Shown here one piece after another: positions 4,204 through 55,144 of a DNA stretch of 64,000 bases. Numbering within the stretch: the first letter of the stretch is position 1; every line of letters starts with the position of its first letter. The notes under the pieces were generated by a model. That model had not been told where the DNA came from and did no database searches. It saw nothing but the letters and a program-made list of their open reading frames with translations. The DNA is from an uncultured Pseudomonadales bacterium (lineage in GTDB: Bacteria > Pseudomonadota > Gammaproteobacteria > Pseudomonadales > Azotimanducaceae), in contig OY282447.1 in the NCBI GenBank assembly GCA_958296165.1, positions 4,501,154-4,565,153 on the forward strand, written 5' to 3'. Made by a program: the position numbers and the translations under genes.

Positions 4204-5859
4204 TTACCGTAGACGCCACTCGCTCGCCAGCTTATCTACAAGCCTAGTCTGCCGAGCTCTCAAGACCTTAGGAGTCCACTTCCTCTCATTTATAACATCC
4301 GTAGTCAACGGGAATGTTGGAATGCCCTCCTGCTGGAAATACTGCTTCTTCTTCTTTGAGAACTCCTGATTAGATGCTTGCATATTCTTCCTCCATGACA
4401 ATAGGACAAGATTTGCGAGACGATGTGTCCACTCAGCGCGTTCATCGTCATCTGGGAACCATTTGATCCACTCAGAATTTTCCTCGGGTTTCTGCGGAAG
4501 TACATGTTCTATCGTGACGGTAGAACGCTCATAAGTGGCCTCACCGCTCGCCAACAAGCCATCCAGACGAAGCAGCAACGGCATCCGCACTCGAGCCAGC
4601 GTATACACCGGCCCGTCCAAGGACTCTATAATCGATCGCTTCTCGTCCTCGTCCAATTCAAGTGACTTCCGTATTTTCTTCATCTTTAGCCCTTGAATCG
4701 CGCTCGTGACACTTGCGTATCGAGTGATCCGACGGTTGACGTTCGCCCGCAGGATGAAAAGGCCATAAGCAAGCCGCTCAAGTCCTCTCACGCACTCTAT
4801 AAGATCCTGTTCTTTTGGCGGTGGCTCGAAGAAGAGCTGCATGACCGGTGGAATCCAATCTACATTGTCTAGGCGTGACAGATGCTTGAGATACGGCCTC
4901 ACTTCGCGGGGCACTTGATCTTCGTTTCTGCCCACCGCCTTCTCATACGCTAGCGCGTAAGGCACTAGCAATTTATCTATAAACTCTTCTCCGGCCATGT
5001 TGCGAAGAACGCCCTCTTGAAATTCGTCGTGGAGATTGCGACGGGGCTTCTCCTTTGTGTGGATCATTCGGATATGAGAAAAGAGCGCAATAAAGCGTTC
5101 TCGTCCGATCTGATTTTCTTCACGCTCCCACTTCTCAGCATACGCCGAGCGTGATCGCTTGTCGATCTTTCCAGTAATGTCTGCCTTTAGTATGTCGGTA
5201 GGCGAGAGGTCTAATCCCCGGTCGTTCATGACGGAAAAGATACGGTGCGCCGAGCTGGGATTGTTCGTCGTAACTACGACTAGGTAACACCGCTCTATGA
5301 CGAAGCTAGCTAGCTTCCTATATTTCTTCTTTCCCAATCTCTTTACCTCCCGGTAGAGGTGTTTCACGTTCTCTGCAATCCGCTCTTGACTGTCAGTGTT
5401 CGTAGACGGAGACTGGTCAATTAGTTGCTTTATCCCTCCTTTCTTTTGCACATATTCGTGGAAGAACTCTTGATCCATATCTCTGAGGCGTAACCCCAAG
5501 ACCTGCGGCCTTTTTGAGACCACATCCTCTCGTTGTCGGATCCTTTGGTCGAGATCGTCGGACCAGCGTCCGGATGCCAACTCTCGGATGGCACATAGCA
5601 GCATGATCAACGTAGTTAGCCGCTGCTGGCCGTCGACCACTTCGCACTCCGGCATGCCGTCCTGCTTAATCAGCACTATGCTTCCTAGGAAATACGGTTC
5701 GTGGTCACCTTGACCCATCGCGTCTAGGAGGTCATCCAACAGCGCCTCCACCTGTTCCAACTCCCACGCATAGGGTCTCTGGTAGACAGGGATTTGAAAC
5801 ACATAGTCCCTGCAAAAGATCAAGTCTAAGCTCTTCTCGCTGGCTCCAATTGCCGCCAC
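4204..5859 (-). CDS. DUF262/DUF1524 protein, GmrSD-like modification-dependent restriction enzyme
   Basis: 551 residues from a GTG at 5859 that sits seven bases after GGAGG; an in-frame start at 5925 is less well supported. The N-terminal DUF262 (GmrS-like, ParB-fold NTPase) domain has FQIPVYQRPYAWE near residue 20 and VVDGQQRLTTLI near residue 75. The C-terminal DUF1524 (GmrD-like HNH nuclease) domain has TIEHVLPQ and, further on, the HRLANLVLLSWRKN helix. Both halves of a GmrSD type IV enzyme are therefore present in one chain. Such enzymes cut phage DNA carrying modified, for example glucosylated, cytosine. The gene is clearly AT-richer than its neighbours, with rare codons such as AGA and ATA, so it was probably acquired by transfer. 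Confidence 0.85.
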   Translation of the reverse strand: MAAIGASEKSLDLIFCRDYVFQIPVYQRPYAWELEQVEALLDDLLDAMGQGDHEPYFLGSIVLIKQDGMPECEVVDGQQRLTTLIMLLCAIRELASGRWSDDLDQRIRQREDVVSKRPQVLGLRLRDMDQEFFHEYVQKKGGIKQLIDQSPSTNTDSQERIAENVKHLYREVKRLGKKKYRKLASFVIERCYLVVVTTNNPSSAHRIFSVMNDRGLDLSPTDILKADITGKIDKRSRSAYAEKWEREENQIGRERFIALFSHIRMIHTKEKPRRNLHDEFQEGVLRNMAGEEFIDKLLVPYALAYEKAVGRNEDQVPREVRPYLKHLSRLDNVDWIPPVMQLFFEPPPKEQDLIECVRGLERLAYGLFILRANVNRRITRYASVTSAIQGLKMKKIRKSLELDEDEKRSIIESLDGPVYTLARVRMPLLLRLDGLLASGEATYERSTVTIEHVLPQKPEENSEWIKWFPDDDERAEWTHRLANLVLLSWRKNMQASNQEFSKKKKQYFQQEGIPTFPLTTDVINERKWTPKVLRARQTRLVDKLASEWRLR

Positions 5860-5961
5860 ACTCACTCCTCCACCATGCACGAGTCCTTCACGGTGCTCAT
5901 AGTTAGTGAGGTAGAAGCATACCACTGAAGTCTGCCTAAAGGTTGCGAACTGCGATTAACA

Positions 5962-6538: not shown

Positions 6539-8014
6539 GTGGAAGTGGACGGAGCGAAGTGGTTCGCCGGAGTGGACTGGGGCACCCGGACGCATCAGGC
6601 GTGCGTTCTGGACTGGTCGGGGAAAGCGGTCGGCGAGCGAGCGTTCGCGCACGGCGGGGAGGGGCTGTCGGCGCTGTCGGACTGGCTGGCGTCGTTCGCG
6701 GACGGAGACGCGGGCGCGGTCGGCGTGGCGATGGAGACGCCTCGCGGCCCGGTGACCGAGAGCCTGATGGAGCGCGGCTTCGCGGTGCATTCGATCAATC
6801 CGAAGCAGTTGGATCGGTTCCGCGACCGGCACTCGCCAGCGGGGGCGAAGGACGACCGTCGGGACGCCTGGGTGCTGGCGTCGGCGCTGCGCACGGACCC
6901 GCACTGCCTGCGGCGGCTGACGGCGACGGCGGCGGAAGTGGTGGAGCTTCGGGAGTGGTCGCGGCTGGCGGGCGAGCTGACGCGGGAGCGGACGCGGCTG
7001 GCGAACCGGATGCGCGAACAGCTGTGGCGGTACTATCCGCAGTTTCTGGACGCGGTGGGCGGCGACGTGGCCTCGGCGTTCGCGCTGGCGCTGTGGAAGC
7101 GGCTGCCGAATCCGGGCGCGGGGCGCAAGGCGCGCGAGAGCACTTTGAACAAGCTGCTGAAGCTGCACGGCATCCGGCGCATCGACGCCGAGACGCTGCG
7201 GATGAGGCTGCGCGCGCCCTCGGCGCCGCTGGCGCCGGGTTCGGCGGTCGCCGCCGAGTCGCACGTCCGCCTCGTGGCGAAGCGCCTGGAACTGGCCAAC
7301 GAGCAGCTGTCGGAGGCGCGCCGGCGTCTCGACGAATTGCTGGCCGGCCTCGCGTCCGCGCCGGGCGCTGCGGACGAGGCGTCGGGAGACGCGCCGGGGC
7401 AGCCCGAGCGCCACCGCGACGCGGCCGTTCTCCTGTCCTTGCCGGGAGTGGGAACGACCGTCGCCGCGGCGCTGCTGTCGGAGGCGCCGGACGCCTTGCG
7501 GAACAGAGACTGCCACGCCCTGCGCTGCATCTGCGGCGTCGCGCCGGTGACGCGGCGTTCGGGGAAGAGCCTGCTCGTGGTTCGGCGCCTGGCGGCGCAC
7601 GATCGGCTGCGCGACGCCGCGTGCCACTGGGCGCGAGTCGCGGCGCAGCGGGATCCGGTCGGCAAGGCGAAGTGCCAGGCACTGCGCCAGCGCGGCCACC
7701 GCCATGCCCGAGCCCTCCGCTCGGTGGCCGACCGACTGCTGAACGTCGCGTGCGCGATGTTGCGCGACGGCGCCGTCTTCGACCCCCAGCGCGTCGGAGC
7801 CCCCGCGCCCGGGATCGAAGGCCTGAAAGCGCCCCCGACGGCAACGCTCTTGGCGCCGCCGATAGGAACTACCAAAAAACGCAAAATCACCCTTGCAAAA
7901 AGGTGGGGAGTCCCCCCCGCGCGTCTAGGGAGGAGCGGAGGGCGGCACCAGCGCCCTATAAGGACAAGGACAGCCGGCGCCCAGGTCACCGATCGCCAGC
8001 GAGCAGCGGACTAG
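6539..8014 (+). CDS. IS110-family transposase
   Basis: 491 residues. The DEDD RuvC-like N-terminal domain is intact: WFAGVDWGTRTHQACVLDW (first Asp), VGVAMETPRG (Glu), and KDDRRDAWVLAS (Asp pair). The C-terminal Transposase_20 domain shows LLSLPGVGTTVAAALLSEAPD. The start is GTG at 6539 or GTG at 6545, the latter better spaced from GGAGG. The family normally ends soon after DRLLNVACAMLRDG; here about 75 further basic, low-complexity residues follow, so the native stop may have been lost or the 3' end truncated. I see no terminal repeats, which is normal for IS110. It is a different subtype from the IS110 copy at 37081-38370. Confidence 0.88.
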   Translation: MEVDGAKWFAGVDWGTRTHQACVLDWSGKAVGERAFAHGGEGLSALSDWLASFADGDAGAVGVAMETPRGPVTESLMERGFAVHSINPKQLDRFRDRHSPAGAKDDRRDAWVLASALRTDPHCLRRLTATAAEVVELREWSRLAGELTRERTRLANRMREQLWRYYPQFLDAVGGDVASAFALALWKRLPNPGAGRKARESTLNKLLKLHGIRRIDAETLRMRLRAPSAPLAPGSAVAAESHVRLVAKRLELANEQLSEARRRLDELLAGLASAPGAADEASGDAPGQPERHRDAAVLLSLPGVGTTVAAALLSEAPDALRNRDCHALRCICGVAPVTRRSGKSLLVVRRLAAHDRLRDAACHWARVAAQRDPVGKAKCQALRQRGHRHARALRSVADRLLNVACAMLRDGAVFDPQRVGAPAPGIEGLKAPPTATLLAPPIGTTKKRKITLAKRWGVPPARLGRSGGRHQRPIRTRTAGAQVTDRQRAAD

Positions 8015-8035
8015 GTGAAGTGCCTCATACGCTAA

Positions 8036-8092
8036 GTGCCGGGAATCGAGACGAGATCTGAGCCTTGAATAGTCCCCGTCTCGGTACGGCAC
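8036..8092. repeat. Imperfect inverted repeat in the spacer before the Ldh2 gene
   Basis: GTGCCG-n5-CGAGACG at 8036-8053 is mirrored by CGTCTCG-n3-CGGCAC at 8077-8092, separated by 23 bases. It could be a remnant of an insertion sequence end or an RNA hairpin. The rest of the spacer 8015-8357 holds no gene I recognise. Open frames there are short and unmatched. Confidence 0.55.
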
Positions 8093-8357
8093 AACGCAGG
8101 CGAGTCGAACGGGCCGGCACAAGCTGGCGTTCCGCGGGCTGGCGGAAGGCGACGCGGGAGTTCTGGTGGACGACGAGAAGGGCATGCGGGATCGGACGGA
8201 CGCGGCGAAAGCAGCGTTCGCTGGCAACGGACCCTACTCTGTGTTGACGGACGACCGGACGACACAACGACTTTCCGCCAACAGGTTTGAGCTATATGCT
8301 GCGCGCTTCGCGCCCAAAGCAGGCAAAACCAACACCATCGTCTCTTGAGGAGAGAGC

Positions 8358-27374: not shown

Positions 27375-30017
27375 TCATAAGCCGGCGACTCGTCCGTCCT
27401 CATCCAGTCCGATGTCGAGCGCCGCCGGGCGGCGTGGCAGGCCCGGCATGGTCATGATGTTGCCGCAGATGGCCACAACGAAGCCAGCGCCAGCGCAGAG
27501 ACGGGCTTCGCGCACCGGCAGAACGTGGCCGCTTGGGGCGCCGAGCGCTCGTTGGTCCGCCGAGAAGCTGTATTGCGTCTTGGCGACGCAGACGGGCAGA
27601 TGGCCATAGCCTAGACGCTCGAAATCGTCCAGCTGGCGCGCGGCGGCAGCGTCAAGAGCGACTGCGCTGGCGCCGTAGATGCGGGTGGCCACCGTGTGCA
27701 GCTTTTCCCGCAACGGCAAGTCGTCGGGATAGAGAAGCTGCACATCGCTCCGTTGGCCGTTCAGCGTATCGAGCACGGCGCGAGCCAACGCTTCTGCACC
27801 GGCGCCGCCGTTCTCCCAATGCGTCGCAACGACGCTCGCTGCGCCGCCGGCGGCAGCTACATCTTCAACAGCCGCCAGTTCGGCGTCCGTGTCGGAGGCG
27901 AAGCGATTGATCGCTACCACCGGTGCGAGCGCGAACCGGCGCAAGTTGTCGATGTGGCGAGTCAGATTCGCAGCACCCGCCCGCACAGCCGCGACATTCG
28001 GCTCGGCTAGATCGCTCGCGACGATGCCGCCGTGCATCTTGAGCGCTCGCACGGTACACACCAGCACGGCCGCTGCCGGGCGCAGGCCGGATTGGCGGCA
28101 TTTGATGTTGAGGAACTTCTCCGCACCCAGATCCGCACCGAAGCCGGCCTCGGTAACCACGACGTCCGAAAGCGCCAGCGCGGTCCGAGTGGCGACTACG
28201 GAGTTGCAGCCGTGCGCGATGTTGGCGAACGGGCCGCCGTGAACGAAGGCCGGATTGCCTTCCAGACTCTGCACCAAGTTAGGCTGCAAGGCGTCGGTGA
28301 GCAAAGCTGCCGCGGCGCCGGCAGCACCGAGTTCGCCGGCGCTCACGGGCTCGCCGTCGTAGCGGCGGGCCAACACAATGCGAGCCAGGCGCTCCTGCAA
28401 ATCTGCCTGATCCTGGGCCAAGCACAGCACCGCCATCACCTCGGAAGCGGCGGTGATGTCGAAGCCGCCCGTGCGGCGCTTGCCGCGACCGACGTTCATG
28501 TCAATGTCGCGCAACGCTCGGTCGTTGAGGTCGATGGCGCGACGCCAAACGACCGTCGCCGGGTCGATGCCGAGCTTGTTGCCCCAGTAAAGGTGGTTGT
28601 CGAGCATCGCCGCGAGCAGGTTGTTGGCGGCCGTGACGGCGTGCAGGTCGCCGTTGAAGTGCAGGTTGATGTCTGCCATCGGCGCGATTTGCGACCAGCC
28701 GCCGCCGGTGGCGCCGCCCTTCGCGCCGAAGCACGGGCCCAACGAAGGTTCTCGCAAACAAACCGTCGCGGACGTACCCAGCCGATTCAGCGCATCCGCA
28801 AGACCGATGCTGGTAGTGGTCTTGCCTTCGCCAGCCGCGGTAGGCGAGATGGCGGTCACCAGCACCAGCTTGCCCTGCGGTCGGGCCGTCAGTCCCGGCA
28901 GCGCCGCCAACGACAGCTTGGCCTTGTAGTGACCGAACGGAATCAGGTGTTCGGCACCGATGCGCAGGCGCTCCTGCGCCAACGGCAGGATTGGTCGCAG
29001 CGGCACGGACGCGGCAATCTCTTGGTCCGTCGCCTCTGGCGGCCTCGGCCGGTGCGCGGGCGCCGGTCGATGCAGCAGCGGCGGTCGATGCGCCAGCGCC
29101 GCGAAGCGTTGCGGGAGCGCGGCCGGCCGTGGGCCGGTCTCACGGCGCTGGCTGCGCAGCCAACGCGCCGCGGTCGGCAAGCCGCCGAAGGCGAACAGGT
29201 GGATGCCGGCCAAGGGGGACTCGGGTTGCGAAGCCCGATGGGTGGCCAGATCGCGCAGCAGCGCATCCGGCGACCAGTTGCCGAACAGCCGCACCACGCC
29301 CGGTCGGCGGGTCAACGCCTGCACGGACGCGCCGACGCCGCAGCGGGCGGCGAAGGTAATCAAGGTGCGCAACCGAGCCGGCCCAGGCAGCCCGATGCGC
29401 ACCGACAGGCCGGTGTCGTGCAACTCCCTCAACCATGCGATGGCCGGCGCCGCAGCGAATACGAACTGCGTGACGAACCACATTTCGGTATCGGTAGCGG
29501 CGGCATATTCACGCTTGCGCCACATGGCCGCCTTCAAGTCGGCCGCGCTCGCCTTTGGATGGCCTTCGGGATGCGCCGCTACGGCGAGGCGGCGGAAGCC
29601 GTGCTCGAGCAGCTTGCCGGAGTCTAGTACCGCCAGCGCATCGCGATAGGCGCCGGCCGGCCGTGCCGCATCGCCGGCGACGAGCAGCAACGAATCGACC
29701 CCGGCTGCGGCAAGTTGGGCAAGGCGCGCGTCAAGCATCTTTGCGTCGCGAATCGTACGCGCCGCGAGATGCGGCACCGGCACCATGCCCGCGTCCAGCA
29801 GCCGTCCGCAGGCCGCCACGGTTTCCTGCCAACGCGCCTTGGGCGGAAACGGCACGTAGACCTCCGTGCCTGGGAGCAAGTGATCCGTCAGGCGGTCGTA
29901 ACCGGCCAGTTGGCGCGGCGCCAGTTCCAGCGAAGCGCTGCGCGCCAACTCGCGCTGCTGCGCACTGGCCGCCGCGTGGTCGGGCCACGGCGCAGCCGCC
30001 TGAGCTTGGGCATGCAC
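27375..30017 (-). CDS. Fusion of methylenetetrahydrofolate reductase-like and formate-tetrahydrofolate ligase domains
   Basis: 880 residues from the GTG at 30017 with GGAG six bases upstream. Residues about 25-292 are MTHFR-like: ARSASLELAPRQL (the catalytic S-x-E), LLLVAGDAARP, AAHPEGHPKASAADLKA and EMWFVTQFVFAA (flavin/folate-binding). A Pro/Arg-rich linker (293-328) joins residues 329-880, a complete FTHFS: HYKAKLSLAALPGL, LVTAISPTAAGEGKTTTSIG (ATP loop), EPSLGPCFGAKGGATGGGW, EVMAVLCLAQD, GFGADLGAEKFLNIKC and ICGNIMTMPGLPRRPAA. The chain holds the first and last steps of 5-methyl-THF oxidation to formate. The middle step (FolD) is not seen. Neighbours are a methyltransferase (3 bases away) and the DMGDH-like enzyme. 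Confidence 0.93.
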   Translation of the reverse strand: MHAQAQAAAPWPDHAAASAQQRELARSASLELAPRQLAGYDRLTDHLLPGTEVYVPFPPKARWQETVAACGRLLDAGMVPVPHLAARTIRDAKMLDARLAQLAAAGVDSLLLVAGDAARPAGAYRDALAVLDSGKLLEHGFRRLAVAAHPEGHPKASAADLKAAMWRKREYAAATDTEMWFVTQFVFAAAPAIAWLRELHDTGLSVRIGLPGPARLRTLITFAARCGVGASVQALTRRPGVVRLFGNWSPDALLRDLATHRASQPESPLAGIHLFAFGGLPTAARWLRSQRRETGPRPAALPQRFAALAHRPPLLHRPAPAHRPRPPEATDQEIAASVPLRPILPLAQERLRIGAEHLIPFGHYKAKLSLAALPGLTARPQGKLVLVTAISPTAAGEGKTTTSIGLADALNRLGTSATVCLREPSLGPCFGAKGGATGGGWSQIAPMADINLHFNGDLHAVTAANNLLAAMLDNHLYWGNKLGIDPATVVWRRAIDLNDRALRDIDMNVGRGKRRTGGFDITAASEVMAVLCLAQDQADLQERLARIVLARRYDGEPVSAGELGAAGAAAALLTDALQPNLVQSLEGNPAFVHGGPFANIAHGCNSVVATRTALALSDVVVTEAGFGADLGAEKFLNIKCRQSGLRPAAAVLVCTVRALKMHGGIVASDLAEPNVAAVRAGAANLTRHIDNLRRFALAPVVAINRFASDTDAELAAVEDVAAAGGAASVVATHWENGGAGAEALARAVLDTLNGQRSDVQLLYPDDLPLREKLHTVATRIYGASAVALDAAAARQLDDFERLGYGHLPVCVAKTQYSFSADQRALGAPSGHVLPVREARLCAGAGFVVAICGNIMTMPGLPRRPAALDIGLDEDGRVAGL

Positions 30018-30020
30018 AAC

Positions 30021-31355
30021 CTACTCCACGCTGTCCCGGCCTTTGGCACGGGCCACTTCCCGCGAGTTCGGATTGACCGACGGCCGGAACGGCACATCGA
30101 CCACCTCGGCGGATGCGCTGCCGTCTTGCCCCGACTCGTGGTAGGCGCCCGGCAGCTGCACCCGCAGCCTAGTGCCAACCGCGCGCATTTCCCACGGCAC
30201 ATAGGCCAGAGCGATATTGGTCTCCAGTTCCGGCGAGAACCACGGCGACGTGACGTAGCCCACCGGTTCGCCGCCATCGGCCGGGCCTACCAGCCAGAAA
30301 TCGTTGGCGTAGTCGGTCACCGGCCGGCCGCCGAAGACGAGACCCACCAGCACGTTCCGAAACGGCGGCTTGCCGGCTTCCATGGCGGTACGCGCAGCTT
30401 CCAAAGCCTCCTTGCCGATGTAGTCGGTGCGCTTGCGGCGCGGCACCTGATAGCCGAGGTTGCATTGGAAGGGGAGCGTCTCCTGATCCAGGTCCTGTCC
30501 CCAAGAGAGGATGCCGGCGGCGATCCGGCGATGGTGCGCCGGCGCCGTCACCATCAGGTTGTGGCGCTCGCCAGCTTCGAGCACGGCGTACCAGAGCTCC
30601 TCGGCGTAGAGCGTGGCGTCCTTGAGGTATATCTCGTAGCCCTTTTCGCCCGTAAAGCCGGTTTGCGAGACGATCACGTCTCGGCCTCGCACTTGGCCCT
30701 CCATCAGTCCGTAGAAGGGGATGTCGCGCACCCGCTCGCCGAGCAGGTCCACCAGCAGGGCCTCCGATTTCGGGCCTTGGATCTGCACCGGCGCGACGTC
30801 GATCTCGGCGATGCTCACGTTGCACTTCAAGCCGATGTTGACGCCGCGCAGCCACAACTCGATGTCGCTGTCGGCCAGCGAGAACCAGAACTCGTCTTCC
30901 GCTACGCGCAACAACACCGGATCGTTCAGCACGCCGCCGGCCTCGTTGCAGAGAATGACGTACTTGGCCTGCATGGCCGGGATGCGCTTGGCGCTGCGCG
31001 TGATCACATGGTCGACGAACCGTTCGGCGTCTGGCCCTTTCACTTGGATCTGCCGTTCCACGGCGACGTTCCAGAGCGTCACGTGGTTCACCAGCGCGTT
31101 GTACTCGACCATCGCGCCACCGTCTTCGGGGCGCACGTAGCCGCGCGGATGGTAGACGCGGTTGTAGACCGTGGCGCGCCAACAGCCGGCCTCCATCGAC
31201 AGGTGCCAGTACGGCGACTTGCGCACGCGGGTGGAGATCAGCATTCCTACCGGCGTCGGGCCGGATTGGCGCAGATTGATGGGTACGCTGCGGTCGGATT
31301 GATCGACGCTCAAGCACTGGCGCAAATCGGCGTACCGCACGGAGGATCCTGTCAT
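30021..31355 (-). CDS. GcvT-family methyltransferase, DmdA-like demethylase
   Basis: 444 residues from the ATG at 31355 (the frame is open to 31406). The GcvT fold resembles dimethylsulfoniopropionate demethylase DmdA: TVYNRVYHPRGYV, ALVNHVTLWNVAVERQIQVK, EAGGVLNDPVLLRVAEDEFW, VQIQGPKSEALLVDLLG and SQTGFTGEKGYEIYLKD. A GcvT_C domain ends the chain. DmdA and LigM-type relatives move a methyl group from a substrate to THF, giving 5-methyl-THF. Three bases later the MTHFR-FTHFS fusion begins, the enzyme that would oxidise this product. The substrate may be DMSP, a betaine or a methoxy compound; the BCCT transporter upstream favours an onium compound. Confidence 0.85.
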   Translation of the reverse strand: MTGSSVRYADLRQCLSVDQSDRSVPINLRQSGPTPVGMLISTRVRKSPYWHLSMEAGCWRATVYNRVYHPRGYVRPEDGGAMVEYNALVNHVTLWNVAVERQIQVKGPDAERFVDHVITRSAKRIPAMQAKYVILCNEAGGVLNDPVLLRVAEDEFWFSLADSDIELWLRGVNIGLKCNVSIAEIDVAPVQIQGPKSEALLVDLLGERVRDIPFYGLMEGQVRGRDVIVSQTGFTGEKGYEIYLKDATLYAEELWYAVLEAGERHNLMVTAPAHHRRIAAGILSWGQDLDQETLPFQCNLGYQVPRRKRTDYIGKEALEAARTAMEAGKPPFRNVLVGLVFGGRPVTDYANDFWLVGPADGGEPVGYVTSPWFSPELETNIALAYVPWEMRAVGTRLRVQLPGAYHESGQDGSASAEVVDVPFRPSVNPNSREVARAKGRDSVE

Positions 31356-31511
31356 GGCGCCACTCGCCTCTAAGCCGCATGGACAGGCGCACATTACTCG
31401 CAACATCCAAGCGAGCGAATGTCCATAACGCGACGCGGATTCGTCCGATTACGACACCCGGCCAAGCAGCGCAGCCAAGCCGTTGCAAGCCGCTGAAAGG
31501 AAGCGCCGTGT

Positions 31512-32480
31512 CTAGTCCACCGCGCGGCGCTCGTCGCTGGGCCGCTTGCCGTACTTCTCCACGTACCGTTTGCCGAACCACGTCGAGTTGGAAAAGCCGC
31601 AACGCATGGCGATCGTGGCGATAGACAGCGTGGTTTGCAGCAGCAACAAGCGGCCGCGGTTCAAGCGCAAGTCCAAGTAGTAGCGCAACGGCGTACAGTG
31701 CAGATGGTCTTGGAACAGCCTCTCCAGCTGGCGCCGTGAAACGCCCGCGTAGCCGGCCAGTTCGGCGAGGCTGAGCGGCTCTTCGATGTTGGCCTCCATC
31801 ATCGCCACCGCATCGACCAGCTTCGGCTGATTGCCGGCGCCGATCAAATAGTGCAACGGCAGGCGCTGGGCATCGCCTTCGGTGCGTATGCGCTCCAGCA
31901 CGAAGTGCTCCGAGATCTCCCGCGCCAGCTCTGCGCCGTGCGCTGCCGCAACGATGTGCAGCATCAGGTCCATCGAGCTGACGCCGCCCGAGCAGGTGTA
32001 GCGATCGCGATCGACGGCGAACAGGCTGGACGACACCTGCACTTGCGGGAATTGCTCGCGCAGACTGTCCGCATGCTCCCAGTGGATGGCACAGCGATAG
32101 CCGTCTAGCAGGCCGGCCGCGGCCAGTATGTGAGAGCCGGTACACAGTGCGCCCAACTGCACGCCGTGCCGCTCGAAGCGCCGCAGTGCTTCCAGCAAGG
32201 CGGCTTCGCAATACCGCTGCGGGTTTAAGCCGCCGCACACGAACAGCAGGTCTGCATCGTCGAGCGAAGCCAAGGCGCCATCCGGCAGTAGGCGTAGACC
32301 GGCGCTTGACGACACCGGCTCGCCATCCATGGTCACGCACGACCAGCGATACAGCTGCTGCCCCCTCTGCCGGTTCGCCAGCCGCATGACGGCGATGGCA
32401 TTGGTGAACGTGACCATCGTGTATTCGGGCACGGTCAGGAAAGCGATGTGGGCACGGACTGCGCCGTCGCTACGATCCAT
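31512..32480 (-). CDS. GlxA-family AraC-type transcriptional regulator (GbdR-like)
   Basis: 322 residues from the ATG at 32480. The N-terminal DJ-1/PfpI-like domain (about 10-175) has DADLLFVCGGLNPQRY and LGALCTGSHILAAAGLLDGY. The C-terminal AraC domain (about 220-320) has PLSLAELAGYAGVSRRQLER and IATIAMRCGFSNSTWFGKRY. GbdR, SouR and CdhR, which control glycine betaine, sarcosine and carnitine breakdown, have this architecture. It starts eight bases after the BCCT transporter gene and lies 156 bp upstream of the demethylase gene, so it probably activates the catabolic genes in response to the transported compound. The ligand is inferred from neighbours only. Confidence 0.88.
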   Translation of the reverse strand: MDRSDGAVRAHIAFLTVPEYTMVTFTNAIAVMRLANRQRGQQLYRWSCVTMDGEPVSSSAGLRLLPDGALASLDDADLLFVCGGLNPQRYCEAALLEALRRFERHGVQLGALCTGSHILAAAGLLDGYRCAIHWEHADSLREQFPQVQVSSSLFAVDRDRYTCSGGVSSMDLMLHIVAAAHGAELAREISEHFVLERIRTEGDAQRLPLHYLIGAGNQPKLVDAVAMMEANIEEPLSLAELAGYAGVSRRQLERLFQDHLHCTPLRYYLDLRLNRGRLLLLQTTLSIATIAMRCGFSNSTWFGKRYVEKYGKRPSDERRAVD

Positions 32481-32488
32481 GCGGCAGG

Positions 32489-34033
32489 TCACTCTTCCTT
32501 CAAGGAACGCAGCAGCGCGACCACCATCAGCGCCAATATGCCCAGCAACGGCAACGACACCACCAGCGTTGTCGATTTCGCCGCGTCCAAGGTCTCGACG
32601 ACCACCAGCCCAATCGGCAAAGGCGCAAGTGCTATCGCCCAAAACACGCGGTGCGCGCGCGTAGGGTGGCTGCCTGGCGAAAGGCCGCTGGTGGCGGACG
32701 CCGCAATGGCGTAGGAAGCCGAGTCGTAGGTCGTGGCAACGAACACCAAGCCGAGGATCAGGAATACGATCAACGGCAGGGGTTGCAGCGCCAAGGCGCC
32801 GATGGCCGCAGCGATGGCGGAGGCCGTTCGACCGTCGCGTACCAGATCCAGGAATCCGATGCCGGCGTACATGTCCATCCACATCACGCTGTTGCCCCAG
32901 ATAACGTAGAACGCGGCGCAGCCCAGCGTGCCGAAGCCGACCATGCCGAAGATCAACGTCCGCAACGTGCGCCCGCGCGAGATCCTGGTAACGAACAGGC
33001 CCATGAACGGGCCGTAGGCGATCCACCAAGCCCAATAGAAGACCGTCCAGTCCTCAACGAAGCTGCCGCTCCCCACCGCATCGGTCCAAGTATTCATGCG
33101 CACGAACTCGGTCAGCATCAAGCCGATCGACGAGGTACCCAACTCCAAAGCGAAGACGGCCGGGCCGGTGGCCAGCACCCACGCCAGGAATACGCCAGCG
33201 AGCGCCAAGTTGAGGTTGGAAAGACGCCTGATGCCGCGTTCCATACCCAGAAAGACGCTCGCCGCGAACAGCAGCACGCATGTCGCGCAAATGGCGAGCG
33301 TGAGCGTAAACGACTCCTCGATGCCAAGCAGCCGCGCCGCGGTCGCGCCCAGCATCGGCGTTGCCAACCCCAGCGATGTGCCGGTGCCGCCGATCAACGC
33401 CAGAATGAACAGCAGATCGACCGCTCGTCCCGCCGGTCGATAGGCGAAATCGCGCCCGTACAGCCCCACCAGTGCGCCGGACAAGCGCAGGTACGGCAGC
33501 CGATAGCGATAGTACGGCCACGCGATGGCGACCGTGGGCAGACAATACAGACACCACGCCGAAATGCCCCAGTGGAAGATGCCGTAGGTGGCTGCCCACT
33601 CGCGCGCCTCCAAGCTGCCCGGTGCAACGCCGAACGGCGGTTGATCCACATACGATGCCCACTCGGCGGTGGACCAATACAGCAATCCCGAGCCGATCCC
33701 CGCGCAGAACAGCATCCCCATCCAGCTCAAGGCGCCGTACTCGGGCTTCGCTTCGTCGCCAAGCACGCGCCGCCCGTGTCGACTGCACGCGAGCCAAGCT
33801 AGGAAGATGGTCGCGAACACGCACGCCCACAGGTAGAGCAGCCCGAGCGTGCCAGCAATCCAGGCGTAGGCGGTGGCGACCAGATCGGCCGCTTGCTGAG
33901 GAAAGAGAATCATCGGCACCGCGGCACCGACCACGCAAAGCACGCTGATGGCGAATACGGGCCGGTCGATCTCCACCCGACGTGGCGTCTGTGCCGAGCG
34001 AAGTTCAGTTGCGGTTCCAGTTGCGGCGGTCAC
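32489..34033 (-). CDS. BCCT-family (betaine/carnitine/choline) transporter
   Basis: 514 residues with about 12 membrane segments. Family marks are MLFCAGIGSGLLYWSTAEWA in TM3, FHWGISAWCLYCLPTVAIAW in TM4, and the TM8 signature FYWAWWIAYGPFMGLFVTRI followed by SRGRT. These carriers take up quaternary ammonium or sulfonium solutes (betaine, carnitine, choline, DMSP), mostly with Na+. It is the first gene of the minus-strand locus that continues with the GbdR-like regulator, the DmdA-like demethylase and the folate enzymes, so it most likely imports their substrate. A short tandem repeat (34088-34142) sits in its upstream region. Confidence 0.92.
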   Translation of the reverse strand: MTAATGTATELRSAQTPRRVEIDRPVFAISVLCVVGAAVPMILFPQQAADLVATAYAWIAGTLGLLYLWACVFATIFLAWLACSRHGRRVLGDEAKPEYGALSWMGMLFCAGIGSGLLYWSTAEWASYVDQPPFGVAPGSLEAREWAATYGIFHWGISAWCLYCLPTVAIAWPYYRYRLPYLRLSGALVGLYGRDFAYRPAGRAVDLLFILALIGGTGTSLGLATPMLGATAARLLGIEESFTLTLAICATCVLLFAASVFLGMERGIRRLSNLNLALAGVFLAWVLATGPAVFALELGTSSIGLMLTEFVRMNTWTDAVGSGSFVEDWTVFYWAWWIAYGPFMGLFVTRISRGRTLRTLIFGMVGFGTLGCAAFYVIWGNSVMWMDMYAGIGFLDLVRDGRTASAIAAAIGALALQPLPLIVFLILGLVFVATTYDSASYAIAASATSGLSPGSHPTRAHRVFWAIALAPLPIGLVVVETLDAAKSTTLVVSLPLLGILALMVVALLRSLKEE

Positions 34034-34217: not shown

Positions 34218-34266
34218 AAACATACCCCTAGAAACATAAACAACGATTGATTTTAGGGGTATGTTT
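34218..34266. promoter_or_regulatory. 13-bp perfect palindrome at the start of the second AAA_14 gene
   Basis: AAACATACCCCTA at 34218-34230 is the exact reverse complement of TAGGGGTATGTTT at 34254-34266, with a 23-bp AT-rich spacer. The right arm contains the first ATG (34261) of the ATPase frame. It could be an operator or an RNA hairpin limiting translation. Confidence 0.75.
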
Positions 34267-35670
34267 CGCTACGTTATGGTTGCCATGCACCGTCATCAGC
34301 TCAACGCTCTGCACACTTGGCTGGCCACGCCGCGACGCAAGCCATTGGTTGTCCGCGGCGCACGGCAAGTGGGCAAGTCCACGTTGGTGCGGCTGTTCTG
34401 CGAGGCGGTTGGGCGTCCGCTAGTTACCGTCAACCTAGAGCGGCATGCTGATTTGGCGGAAGCGTTTGAACGGCTGCGGGCGCCGCGCACCTTGCTCAAC
34501 CTGATCGAGGCGACCGCGGATGCTCCGATTTCTGAGCACACGGTGCTCTTCATCGACGAGATTCAAGCGGCCCCTGCGGCGCTCGCGACGCTGCGCTACT
34601 TCTTCGAGGAACTTCCGAACCAGCCGGTGATTGCCGCCGGCTCGTTGATGGAGTTCACGCTTGCCGAGCGGCCCAATCCGATGCCGGTGGGCCGTGTGTC
34701 ATACCTGCACATGGGGCCGATGACGTTCACAGAGTTCCTGCACGGCCACGGCATGGAGGGCCTCGCCAAGTGGGTTGACGGGTTCGAGTGGTCGTCGAGG
34801 GGTGCGGCTGTCAATCCCGTGCTGCACGGCAGGCTCCTAGAAGCGCTCCGGCTCTATCAGTTCGTCGGCGGCATGCCAGAGGCCGTCAGCGTTTCGCACG
34901 AATCGTCGAGCCTGCGCGCCGTTCGCGACATCCAAGCCGGCATCATCGAGACCTACCGCGACGATTTCCAAAAGTACGCGGCACGGCGGGACCTCGTGCG
35001 GATGCTGCGCGTGTTCAACTTCGCCGCGCGCCAAGCGGGGCACAAGGTCAAGTACAGCAACATCTCGGCCGGCGACCAGAGCGCCACGGTGCGGCGCGAC
35101 ATCGAGCTGTTGGCGATGGCACGAGTGATCTCGAAAGTGACGCACAGCCACTGCTCCGGCCTGCCGCTGCAGGCCGAGGCGCAAGAGCGCGTGTTCAAGC
35201 TGATCTTCTTAGACGTCGGCCTGATGAATGCCCTCTGCGGGCTAAGCTGGAGCGTCCTCGCCTCCCGCTCCGCAACGGACTTGATCAACGCCGGCACCAC
35301 TGCCGAGCAGTTCATCGGTCAGCATCTGCAACATTTGCTCGCCGACAGGCCAAACCGCGAACTCACATATTGGCTGCGCGAAGGCCGCTCGAACAACGCG
35401 GAATTGGACTACGTCGCCGAGTTCGGCGGCAGGATCGTGCCTATCGAAGTGAAGGCTGGCCGAAGCGGCACGATGAAGTCGTTGCATCAGTTTGCGATGG
35501 AGAGGCAGTCGTCGCTAGCAGTACGCTTCGACGCTCAGCCACCGTCGCTGCAAGCCGTGGCGGCGGATGTGCGCAGCGGCTCGAGTTCCAAACGGGTGCG
35601 CTATCGCCTGCTCTCGTTGCCGCTATATCTGGTCGAGCGCCTGCCGAGCATTCTCAACGCGGTCGGGTAA
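34261..35670 (+). CDS. AAA_14/DUF4143 family ATPase, second copy
   Basis: 469 residues from 34261; ATG codons at 34276 and 34285 are also possible, since AGGGG sits only one base before the first ATG. Walker A is VVRGARQVGKSTLVRLF, Walker B is TVLFIDEIQAAP, and a sensor-like VIAAGSLMEFTLAE follows. The C-terminal DUF4143 domain has AELDYVAEFGGRIVPIEVKA, a PD-(D/E)XK-like core. It is a divergent paralogue of the ATPase at 2497-3753. Like that gene it stands alone and is preceded by a repeat structure. The function of this family is not established. Confidence 0.9.
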   Translation: MFRYVMVAMHRHQLNALHTWLATPRRKPLVVRGARQVGKSTLVRLFCEAVGRPLVTVNLERHADLAEAFERLRAPRTLLNLIEATADAPISEHTVLFIDEIQAAPAALATLRYFFEELPNQPVIAAGSLMEFTLAERPNPMPVGRVSYLHMGPMTFTEFLHGHGMEGLAKWVDGFEWSSRGAAVNPVLHGRLLEALRLYQFVGGMPEAVSVSHESSSLRAVRDIQAGIIETYRDDFQKYAARRDLVRMLRVFNFAARQAGHKVKYSNISAGDQSATVRRDIELLAMARVISKVTHSHCSGLPLQAEAQERVFKLIFLDVGLMNALCGLSWSVLASRSATDLINAGTTAEQFIGQHLQHLLADRPNRELTYWLREGRSNNAELDYVAEFGGRIVPIEVKAGRSGTMKSLHQFAMERQSSLAVRFDAQPPSLQAVAADVRSGSSSKRVRYRLLSLPLYLVERLPSILNAVG

Positions 35671-53794: not shown

Positions 53795-55144
53795 CTAAGA
53801 GCCGAGCTGCCGTGCCAGCGCGGCGACGAAGCCGTTGGCCCAGAACATGCCGTTCGACGCTTTCACCAACACGGCGTCGCCGGGCTGCAGCAGCCCCGTG
53901 CAACGGCGCGCCAAGTCACCGTCCACCCGTGCGGCAAGCCCAAGCCGCTGGCGCTGCGGGAGGGCTTCGTAGAGCGCCACGATCCGCTCGCCAACGCAGA
54001 ATACGCCGTCCAGGTTCATGCAGTGCGCCGCAAGCTCGGCATGGTAGCGCGGCGCATCCGCGCCGAGCTCCAGCATGTCTCCCAAGATGGCGATGCGACG
54101 CTCGGCGGGTACTTGGCCGAAGGCAGCGAGCGTCGCCGCCATGCTGGCCGGATTGGCGTTGTAGCTCTCATCGATAATCGACACGGTGCCGATTCGCAGC
54201 ACATTGCCACGTCCTTGCGGCACCTCCAGCTGCGCCAAGCGCTGCAACTGATCGAGCGGCTTATCGAGCGCTACGAGCACGGCGGCAACCGCACACACCG
54301 ACATGGCGCGGTGCTCGCCGCCGCCGGGCACCGGGCAGCGGGCGCGGTCTTGGCCGATGCGCAGTTCCACGCCCTCGGCGCCAACGTCCAGCAAACGCAC
54401 ATCGGCGCCGGCCTCGTTGCCGAAAGTGATCGTCCTGCCTTGAAAGTCCGCCGCCAAACCTGCCGGCCGCACCAACACGCCGTCGGCAGACAGCCCGGCC
54501 GCAATGGAGGTCTTCTCCCGTCGGATGGCCTCCAAGCCGCCGAAGTGCTCGATGTGCGCGGGCCCCACATTCAGCACCACGGCAACATCCGGCGCGGCGA
54601 GCTGCGCCAACGGCGCGATCTCGCCGGGGTGATTGGTGCCGATCTCGCAAACCGTCGCCGCGGCCCCGCCCGGCGTGAGCGCCAAGGACAACGGCACGCC
54701 GATGTGGTTGTTAAGGCTGCCAGGCGCCGAAGACGCGCCCAGCGCTGCGGCGACGAAGGACTTGAACGTGGTTTTGCCGCTGCTGCCGGTCACGGCCACC
54801 ACAGGCGTTTGCAAGCGGCGGCGCGCGGCCCGGCCTAGCGCCCACAAGCCATCGAGAGTGTCGTCCACAAGCAAGGCCGGAACGCCGTAATCCGCACGGC
54901 GATGGACGAGCACGGCAGCCGCGCCTTTGCGCACGGCGTCGGCGACGAAGTCATGGCCATCCCGGTTCGAGCGAGCGCTGGGCCGAAAGCGCGGGCCCGG
55001 ATCGCCGCTCAGCGCCACGAACAGCTCGCCCGGTTTGAGGCGGCGCGAGTCGATGCCGACGCCGGTGACCGCCGGCCCGTCCACGGCCGGCAGGCCGAGG
55101 GCGGCTGCGAGCTCCGGATAGGTCCACAAGGGCCGTGTACTCAA
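53795..55144 (-). CDS. murF: UDP-N-acetylmuramoyl-tripeptide--D-alanyl-D-alanine ligase
   Basis: 449 residues from a TTG at 55144, with GGAG seven bases upstream and no ATG in frame. The Mur_ligase N domain has GVGIDSRRLKPGELFVALSG. The central ATPase domain has VVAVTGSSGKTTFKSFVAAA (P-loop) and GSLNNHIGVPLSLALTPGG, EIGTNHPGEI and NVGPAHIEHFGG. The C-terminal domain has IIDESYNANPASMAATLAAF and AILGDMLELG. It adds D-Ala-D-Ala to the peptidoglycan precursor. It stands alone, away from any division/cell-wall cluster. Confidence 0.94.
   Translation of the reverse strand: MSTRPLWTYPELAAALGLPAVDGPAVTGVGIDSRRLKPGELFVALSGDPGPRFRPSARSNRDGHDFVADAVRKGAAAVLVHRRADYGVPALLVDDTLDGLWALGRAARRRLQTPVVAVTGSSGKTTFKSFVAAALGASSAPGSLNNHIGVPLSLALTPGGAAATVCEIGTNHPGEIAPLAQLAAPDVAVVLNVGPAHIEHFGGLEAIRREKTSIAAGLSADGVLVRPAGLAADFQGRTITFGNEAGADVRLLDVGAEGVELRIGQDRARCPVPGGGEHRAMSVCAVAAVLVALDKPLDQLQRLAQLEVPQGRGNVLRIGTVSIIDESYNANPASMAATLAAFGQVPAERRIAILGDMLELGADAPRYHAELAAHCMNLDGVFCVGERIVALYEALPQRQRLGLAARVDGDLARRCTGLLQPGDAVLVKASNGMFWANGFVAALARQLGS

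What the first reader, a model, noticed from the sequence alone, without database searches (positions are those of the whole stretch)
27375..30017. MTHFR and formate-THF ligase fused in one chain
Residues 25-292 keep MetF-type catalytic motifs and residues 329-880 a full FTHFS, joined by a Pro/Arg-rich linker. These enzymes are normally separate. A fusion of the entry and exit steps of methyl-THF oxidation, without the FolD step, suggests channelling of folate one-carbon units. I do not recall this fusion being described.
Basis: partly seen in the sequence, partly recalled or inferred. Interest (0 to 1): 0.7.

Follow-up and report, generated by a model that had tools for sequence, protein, structure and literature searches.

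The report
Fused methyl-folate oxidase and formate-releasing enzyme
Two enzymes that bacteria usually make separately to burn methyl groups carried on folate are made here as one protein, inside an operon that looks built for stripping methyl groups from a betaine-type compound; the pathway is known, the one-piece enzyme appears undescribed.

Summary
Window 27375-30017 (-) is one 880-residue frame: an MTHFR half (residues ~23-292), a disordered linker and a complete FTHFS half (330-880). The MTHFR half is not canonical MetF; it is closest to the Sphingobium SYK-6 (LigM-linked) MTHFR, whose subfamily a 2026 review describes as preferring methyl-THF oxidation. Both halves keep the key residues checked. 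The same one-frame fusion is in the eight genomes of a second genus that had a match (9 fused of 206 family genomes searched). In ten same-genus relatives the two genes are adjacent and separate. Neighbours: a DmdA-like GcvT-fold protein, a dimethylglycine-dehydrogenase homologue, a GbdR-like regulator and a BCCT transporter. Best reading: a bifunctional enzyme for the THF-linked oxidation arm of betaine-type demethylation: methyl-THF to methylene-THF, then (after FolD, encoded elsewhere) formyl-THF to formate plus ATP. Channelling is not shown: the two reactions are not consecutive and the linker varies. My searches listed no paper on this fusion. New variant of a known kind; moderate interest.

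The parts
27375..30017 (-). Fused ORF, 880 aa: MTHFR (SYK-6 type) + linker + FTHFS
29142..29951 (-). MTHFR half, residues 23-292; E31, D116 and Q184 align with the Glu, Asp and Gln of canonical MetF
   Evidence: 7xg9 E 4.2e-47; alignments; structure match
29031..29141 (-). Linker, residues 293-329; Pro/Arg-rich here, variable among the fused genomes
   Evidence: pLDDT under 50 at 294-322; linker comparison
27378..29030 (-). FTHFS half, residues 330-880; GEGKTTT loop at 396
   Evidence: PF01268, NF010030; 4ioj E 6.5e-204
30021..31406 (-). DmdA-like GcvT-fold protein (probable THF-dependent demethylase, substrate not shown); start probably the Met at residue 55 (about 31244)
   Evidence: PF01571/PF08669; NF009133 257.6 bits, below cut-off 410; PDB 3tfh 151 bits
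24929..27403 (-). Dimethylglycine-dehydrogenase-like protein (DAO + FAO_M + GCV_T + GCV_T_C); overlaps the fused ORF by 29 nt
   Evidence: DMGDH 5l46, 616.7 bits over residues 11-813
31512..33035 (-). GbdR-like AraC-family regulator (matches begin at residue ~193, so the true start probably lies inside this frame)
   Evidence: NF052371 382.4 bits, below cut-off 480; PF12833, PF01965
32489..34033 (-). BCCT betaine/choline/carnitine-type transporter
   Evidence: PF02028 442.7 bits

Best explanation
The ORF encodes one bifunctional enzyme of THF-linked methyl oxidation. The DmdA-like neighbour moves a methyl group from a betaine-type substrate (most likely glycine betaine) to THF. The MTHFR half, of the SYK-6 type, oxidises 5-methyl-THF to 5,10-methylene-THF, and the DMGDH-like neighbour adds further methylene-THF. 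FolD, encoded elsewhere, makes 10-formyl-THF. The FTHFS half releases formate, recovers ATP and returns THF to the demethylase. The fusion arose by joining two commonly adjacent genes (metF-type and fhs); it fixes 1:1 production and co-location of two folate-recycling steps. Shown: single frame, domain identity, residues, gene context, recurrence. Inferred: substrate, direction, both activities, benefit of fusion.
For: FTHFS and SYK-6-type MTHFR identities. E31, D116, Q184 and the GEGKTTT loop present in 9 of 9 fused proteins. Purifying selection on both halves in a close pair (G225/G226: MTHFR dN 0.03, dS 0.11; FTHFS dN 0.01, dS 0.13). Order DmdA-like, MTHFR, FTHFS, DMGDH in 9 of 9 fused and 9 of 10 separate same-genus loci, the tenth (L035, G002) being cut by its contig's end. 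The DmdA-like, MTHFR, FTHFS trio as separate neighbours in Grimontia, Photobacterium, Oceanospirillaceae, Halomonas and an alphaproteobacterium. The own genome also has canonical MetF, one FolD and a formate dehydrogenase alpha over cut-off; the fused protein's FTHFS is the only one found there. Precedents: SYK-6 ligM-metF-ligH, the methyl-THF-oxidising MTHFR subfamily, R. pomeroyi MetF2 (role suggested from proteomics) and Fhs (deletion phenotype on choline and glycine betaine).
Against: No activity has been measured. The DmdA-like protein misses the curated DmdA cut-off and its substrate is unknown; the GbdR-like regulator misses its cut-off too. In ten same-genus relatives the genes are separate, and in genus g8 (4 of 4 genomes examined) the FTHFS lies elsewhere, so the fusion is not needed for the pathway. 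In G225/G226 an in-frame ATG in the linker could also give free FTHFS.
Confidence: 0.74

Rival explanations
1. The fusion is a channelling device: folate stays on the chain or passes between sites, perhaps with FolD docked on the linker.
For: Two steps of one pathway in one chain; found in two genera.
Against: The two steps are not consecutive; FolD is encoded elsewhere; the linker is variable in length and sequence and of low model confidence; ten same-genus relatives do without.
Confidence: 0.12
2. The enzyme runs the other way: formate is charged to formyl-THF and on to methyl-THF for methionine.
For: FTHFS is reversible (recalled) and this is the only FTHFS found in the genome.
Against: A canonical MetF exists for the reductive direction; this MTHFR is of the SYK-6 type and lies between demethylase-type and DMGDH-type genes.
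Confidence: 0.1
3. The single frame is real but the working products are two proteins, by an internal start or by cleavage in the linker.
For: Disordered linker; candidate in-frame starts at or near the linker in 7 of 9 fused genomes.
Against: G021 and G222 have no in-frame start there; the window's only one, GTG338, lies inside the FTHFS N-terminal stretch without an obvious ribosome-binding site.
Confidence: 0.1
4. The frame is an assembly or sequencing artefact.
For: Single genomes can carry errors.
Against: Nine genomes, four of them single-contig; the other eight proteins are 65-69% identical to the window's.
Confidence: 0.01

Closest known systems
LigM-MetF-LigH cluster of Sphingobium SYK-6 (PMC12997858, PMC13001107, passages)
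   Same: Demethylase, MTHFR and FTHFS with consecutive locus tags in the same order (SLG_12740-12760); the MTHFR half is of the SYK-6 structural type (7xg9, 7xlf)
   Different: Three separate genes and aromatic methyl substrates; here MTHFR and FTHFS are one chain and the demethylase is DmdA-like
MetF2 and Fhs in Ruegeria pomeroyi glycine betaine and choline catabolism (PMC12478193, PMC4744692, passages)
   Same: A MetF paralogue and an FTHFS tied to methyl oxidation from N-osmolytes
   Different: Separate proteins; the first demethylation there is cobalamin-dependent (MtgBCD); no MTTB-family (PF06253) gene found in the window's genome
SAR11 metF next to a DmdA-related aminomethyltransferase, with folD and fhs elsewhere (PMC3160333, passages)
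   Same: MTHFR beside a DmdA-like gene; proposed folD-fhs route to formate
   Different: No fusion reported in the passages read
Eukaryotic C1-THF synthase (FolD-FTHFS fusion, recalled)
   Same: A fusion carrying an FTHFS domain with another THF enzyme
   Different: There the partner is the neighbouring FolD step; here it is MTHFR, with FolD's steps in between

Membership tests
SYK-6-type (methyl-THF-oxidising) MTHFR | Sequence and fold closer to 7xg9/7xlf than to E. coli MetF | tested here: met
SYK-6-type (methyl-THF-oxidising) MTHFR | MTHFR catalytic Glu, Asp and Gln kept | tested here: met
   E31, D116, Q184; 9 of 9 fused proteins
SYK-6-type (methyl-THF-oxidising) MTHFR | Gene beside a GcvT-fold (THF-dependent demethylase type) gene | tested here: met
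   DmdA-like gene directly upstream; its activity is not shown
SYK-6-type (methyl-THF-oxidising) MTHFR | Kinetic preference for methyl-THF oxidation | not testable with these tools
   Needs enzyme assay
Canonical bacterial MetF (TIGR00676) | Score over the curated cut-off | tested here: not met
   23.9 bits against 293.7
Formate-THF ligase (NF010030/PF01268) | Full-length match over the curated cut-off | tested here: met
   801.5 against 652 bits; PF01268 positions 2-555 of 556
Formate-THF ligase (NF010030/PF01268) | ATP-binding loop GEGKTTT | tested here: met
   9 of 9 fused proteins; that this loop binds ATP is recalled
DmdA (NF009133), for the upstream neighbour | Score over the curated cut-off | tested here: not met
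   257.6 against 410 bits
Dimethylglycine dehydrogenase, for the downstream neighbour | DAO + FAO_M + GCV_T + GCV_T_C over the whole chain | tested here: met
Dimethylglycine dehydrogenase, for the downstream neighbour | Activity on dimethylglycine | not testable with these tools
   Needs enzyme assay

The most novel reading that the evidence does not exclude
The operon is a complete cobalamin-independent, THF-only route for glycine betaine demethylation (DmdA-like enzyme to methyl-THF, DMGDH to methylene-THF), in which the fused chain acts as a scaffold that gathers FolD and the demethylases into one folate-recycling assembly.
Probability: 0.17. Interest if true: 0.68.

Novelty: new variant of a known kind. 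Interest (0 to 1): 0.43.

Why it matters
A natural single-chain methyl-THF oxidase plus formate-releasing ligase would be a ready-made part for engineering THF recycling: when LigM replaced VanAB in Pseudomonas putida KT2440, growth on vanillate required co-expressed MetF and LigH, together with a host mutation (PMC12997858, passage). Fused and split versions occur in close relatives, so the effect of fusion can be compared directly. The operon also points to a candidate THF-dependent betaine demethylase, a step whose molecular mechanisms in marine bacteria PMC12478193 calls elusive (abstract start).

Tried and rejected
Triple fusion: four fused relatives (G219, G220, G221, G224) show frames of 1148-1345 aa, which suggested that the DmdA-like gene was fused too. 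Rejected: in each of the four the DmdA-like gene is read in another frame, and the long frame is stop-free DNA overlapping it. The same holds for a 787-aa MTHFR frame in G001.

Other MTHFR fusions: of 13 long MTHFR frames listed, 9 were scanned; 8 showed MTHFR alone and one (L054) no Pfam family at E 1e-4. FTHFS frames of 916, 1052 and 1526 aa in G255, G696 and G1228 were not followed up.

One or several origins: on the concatenated MTHFR+FTHFS tree the nine fused proteins need two changes; one clade is not rejected (AU p 0.117), nor is one clade of the ten split same-genus proteins (p 0.192) (five long-branched rows, of g57, Pseudonocardia, Halomonas, and those lacking one half were left out). 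Undecided.

Wider fusions: none besides the window's genome and genus g7 in the order (390 genomes), class (369) and phylum (398) samples. Those scored at most two candidates per genome at E limits of 1e-60 or 1e-40, so a distant fusion could be missed. On plasmids, 0 of 142 matching records had one place covering 80% of the query. Phage and E. coli collections were not searched.

Papers: 10 of 10 searches used; the PDB code 7XG9 found none.

Full report
What is there. The minus-strand frame 27375-30017 runs from a GTG to a TGA without a stop, 880 codons. Residues 330-880 are a complete formate-THF ligase (PF01268 798.8 bits; NF010030 801.5 bits, cut-off 652; 4ioj E 6.5e-204). Residues 23-289 match the solved SYK-6 MTHFR 7xg9 at E 4.2e-47, while E. 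coli MetF 1b5t reaches only E 0.78. Pfam's MTHFR model gives 17.3 bits, below its cut-off of 24, so automatic annotation would tend to miss this half.

Is it one chain? In the family search (206 genomes, 98 with a match of any kind) a single open frame covers both halves in 9: the window's genome and 8 of one second genus (g7: G021, G219-G222, G224-G226; frames checked). These 8 are all the g7 genomes listed with a match; genomes without a match are not all listed, and handle G223 falls in the same run. The window's genome, G224, G225 and G226 are single contigs. In the window's genus, 12 of 16 genomes have a match: 1 fused (own), 10 with separate adjacent genes (in G002 the FTHFS is cut by the contig's end), and G014 with the MTHFR gene but no FTHFS found. 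In the 10 separate pairs the FTHFS frame relative to MTHFR is 0, +1 or +2 in 2, 6 and 2 cases. In the 9 fused it is in frame in 9, with linkers of different length. G021 and G222 have no in-frame start codon there; the window has only GTG338, inside the FTHFS N-terminal stretch; G225 and G226 have an ATG that might also start a free FTHFS. In close pairs MTHFR and FTHFS evolve under constraint. The linker, on few changes, is looser in G225/G226 (dN 0.06, dS 0.05) and G220/G221 (dN 0.09, dS 0.03), but not in G021/G222 (dN 0.02, dS 0.14).

History. In the MTHFR, FTHFS and concatenated trees the window protein groups with G225/G226 on a starred branch, although its genome is assigned to the other genus. 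The DMGDH tree agrees (SH-aLRT 98); the DmdA-like tree does not, and puts it apart from G225/G226 with SH-aLRT 90, not starred (quick trees). One origin of the fusion is not rejected (AU p 0.117) but the best tree has two changes. In G009 a single in-frame TGA stands between the two frames, which shows how short the step to fusion is; no direction is implied.

Wider survey. In genus g41 the genes are adjacent and separate in 5 of 6 genomes with a match; the sixth, G055, has a broken remnant. G460 has them adjacent too. A DmdA-like, MTHFR, FTHFS trio occurs in Grimontia, Photobacterium, Oceanospirillaceae, Halomonas and an alphaproteobacterium (6 loci of 80 outside the family). In genus g8 (4 of 4 genomes examined) DmdA-like, MTHFR and DMGDH genes are together and the FTHFS lies elsewhere.

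Surroundings. Upstream by 3 nt is a DmdA-like GcvT-fold gene (below the curated DmdA cut-off). Downstream, overlapping by 29 nt, is a full-length dimethylglycine-dehydrogenase homologue (5l46, 616.7 bits). Further upstream are a GbdR-like regulator (below its cut-off) and a BCCT transporter. The genome has a canonical MetF, one FolD, a formate dehydrogenase alpha over cut-off and no MTTB-family gene found, so every step from methyl-THF to CO2 has a candidate.

Mechanism. Methyl-THF made by the DmdA-like enzyme is oxidised by the MTHFR half; DMGDH feeds methylene-THF; FolD makes formyl-THF; the FTHFS half yields formate, ATP and free THF. This follows SYK-6, where ligM, metF and ligH have consecutive locus tags, and where MetF and LigH, with a host mutation, were required for LigM-based growth in P. 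putida (PMC12997858, passages). A review describes SYK-6 MTHFR as of a subfamily preferring methyl-THF oxidation (PMC13001107, passages). In R. pomeroyi, MetF2 was the most differentially synthesised protein on N-osmolytes and is suggested to oxidise methyl-THF, and an fhs null mutant degrades glycine betaine incompletely (PMC12478193 and PMC4744692, passages). SAR11 has a metF beside a DmdA-related gene (PMC3160333, passages). Because the two fused steps are separated by FolD, direct hand-over between them has no chemical meaning without FolD; shared dosage and co-location are the simpler gain.

Novelty. (full-text searches of an open-licence library, listing 2, 11 and 11 papers) listed no paper that names an MTHFR-FTHFS fusion, judging by titles and abstract starts. 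I read passages of one of the 11 papers (PMC1971073) and of one of the two (PMC12997858); neither reports it there. Subscription papers and protein databases were not searched. I file it as a new variant of a known kind.

Noticed in passing
L032 (G055) oriented 7784-8231: Upstream of an intact FTHFS lies a broken MTHFR remnant (pieces in two frames, the middle missing); another MTHFR-like gene lies on another contig of the same genome.
   Followed up: partly
window 30021-31406: DmdA-like protein conserved at about 67-87% in the loci seen (Gammaproteobacteria, some Alphaproteobacteria, Pseudonocardia, a Gemmatimonadetes-titled contig) yet below the DmdA cut-off: candidate demethylase of unknown substrate, perhaps glycine betaine.
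   Followed up: partly
L050: A contig titled Gemmatimonadetes carries an MTHFR 52% identical to the window's and a DmdA-like gene on the other strand: transfer or binning error.
   Followed up: no
window 53795-55144: Mur-ligase-type protein (PF08245 + PF02875), possibly FolC; neighbours not examined further.
   Followed up: no
window 4204-5925: GmrSD-type restriction endonuclease (PF03235 + PF07510) in a stretch of lower GC (0.515 against about 0.65): perhaps a mobile defence gene.
   Followed up: no
window 34261-35670: AAA_14 + DUF4143 ATPase next to the operon.
   Followed up: no
G255:C15, G696:C68, G1228:C23: FTHFS in unusually long open frames (916, 1052, 1526 aa); could be chance openness or other fusions.
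   Followed up: no
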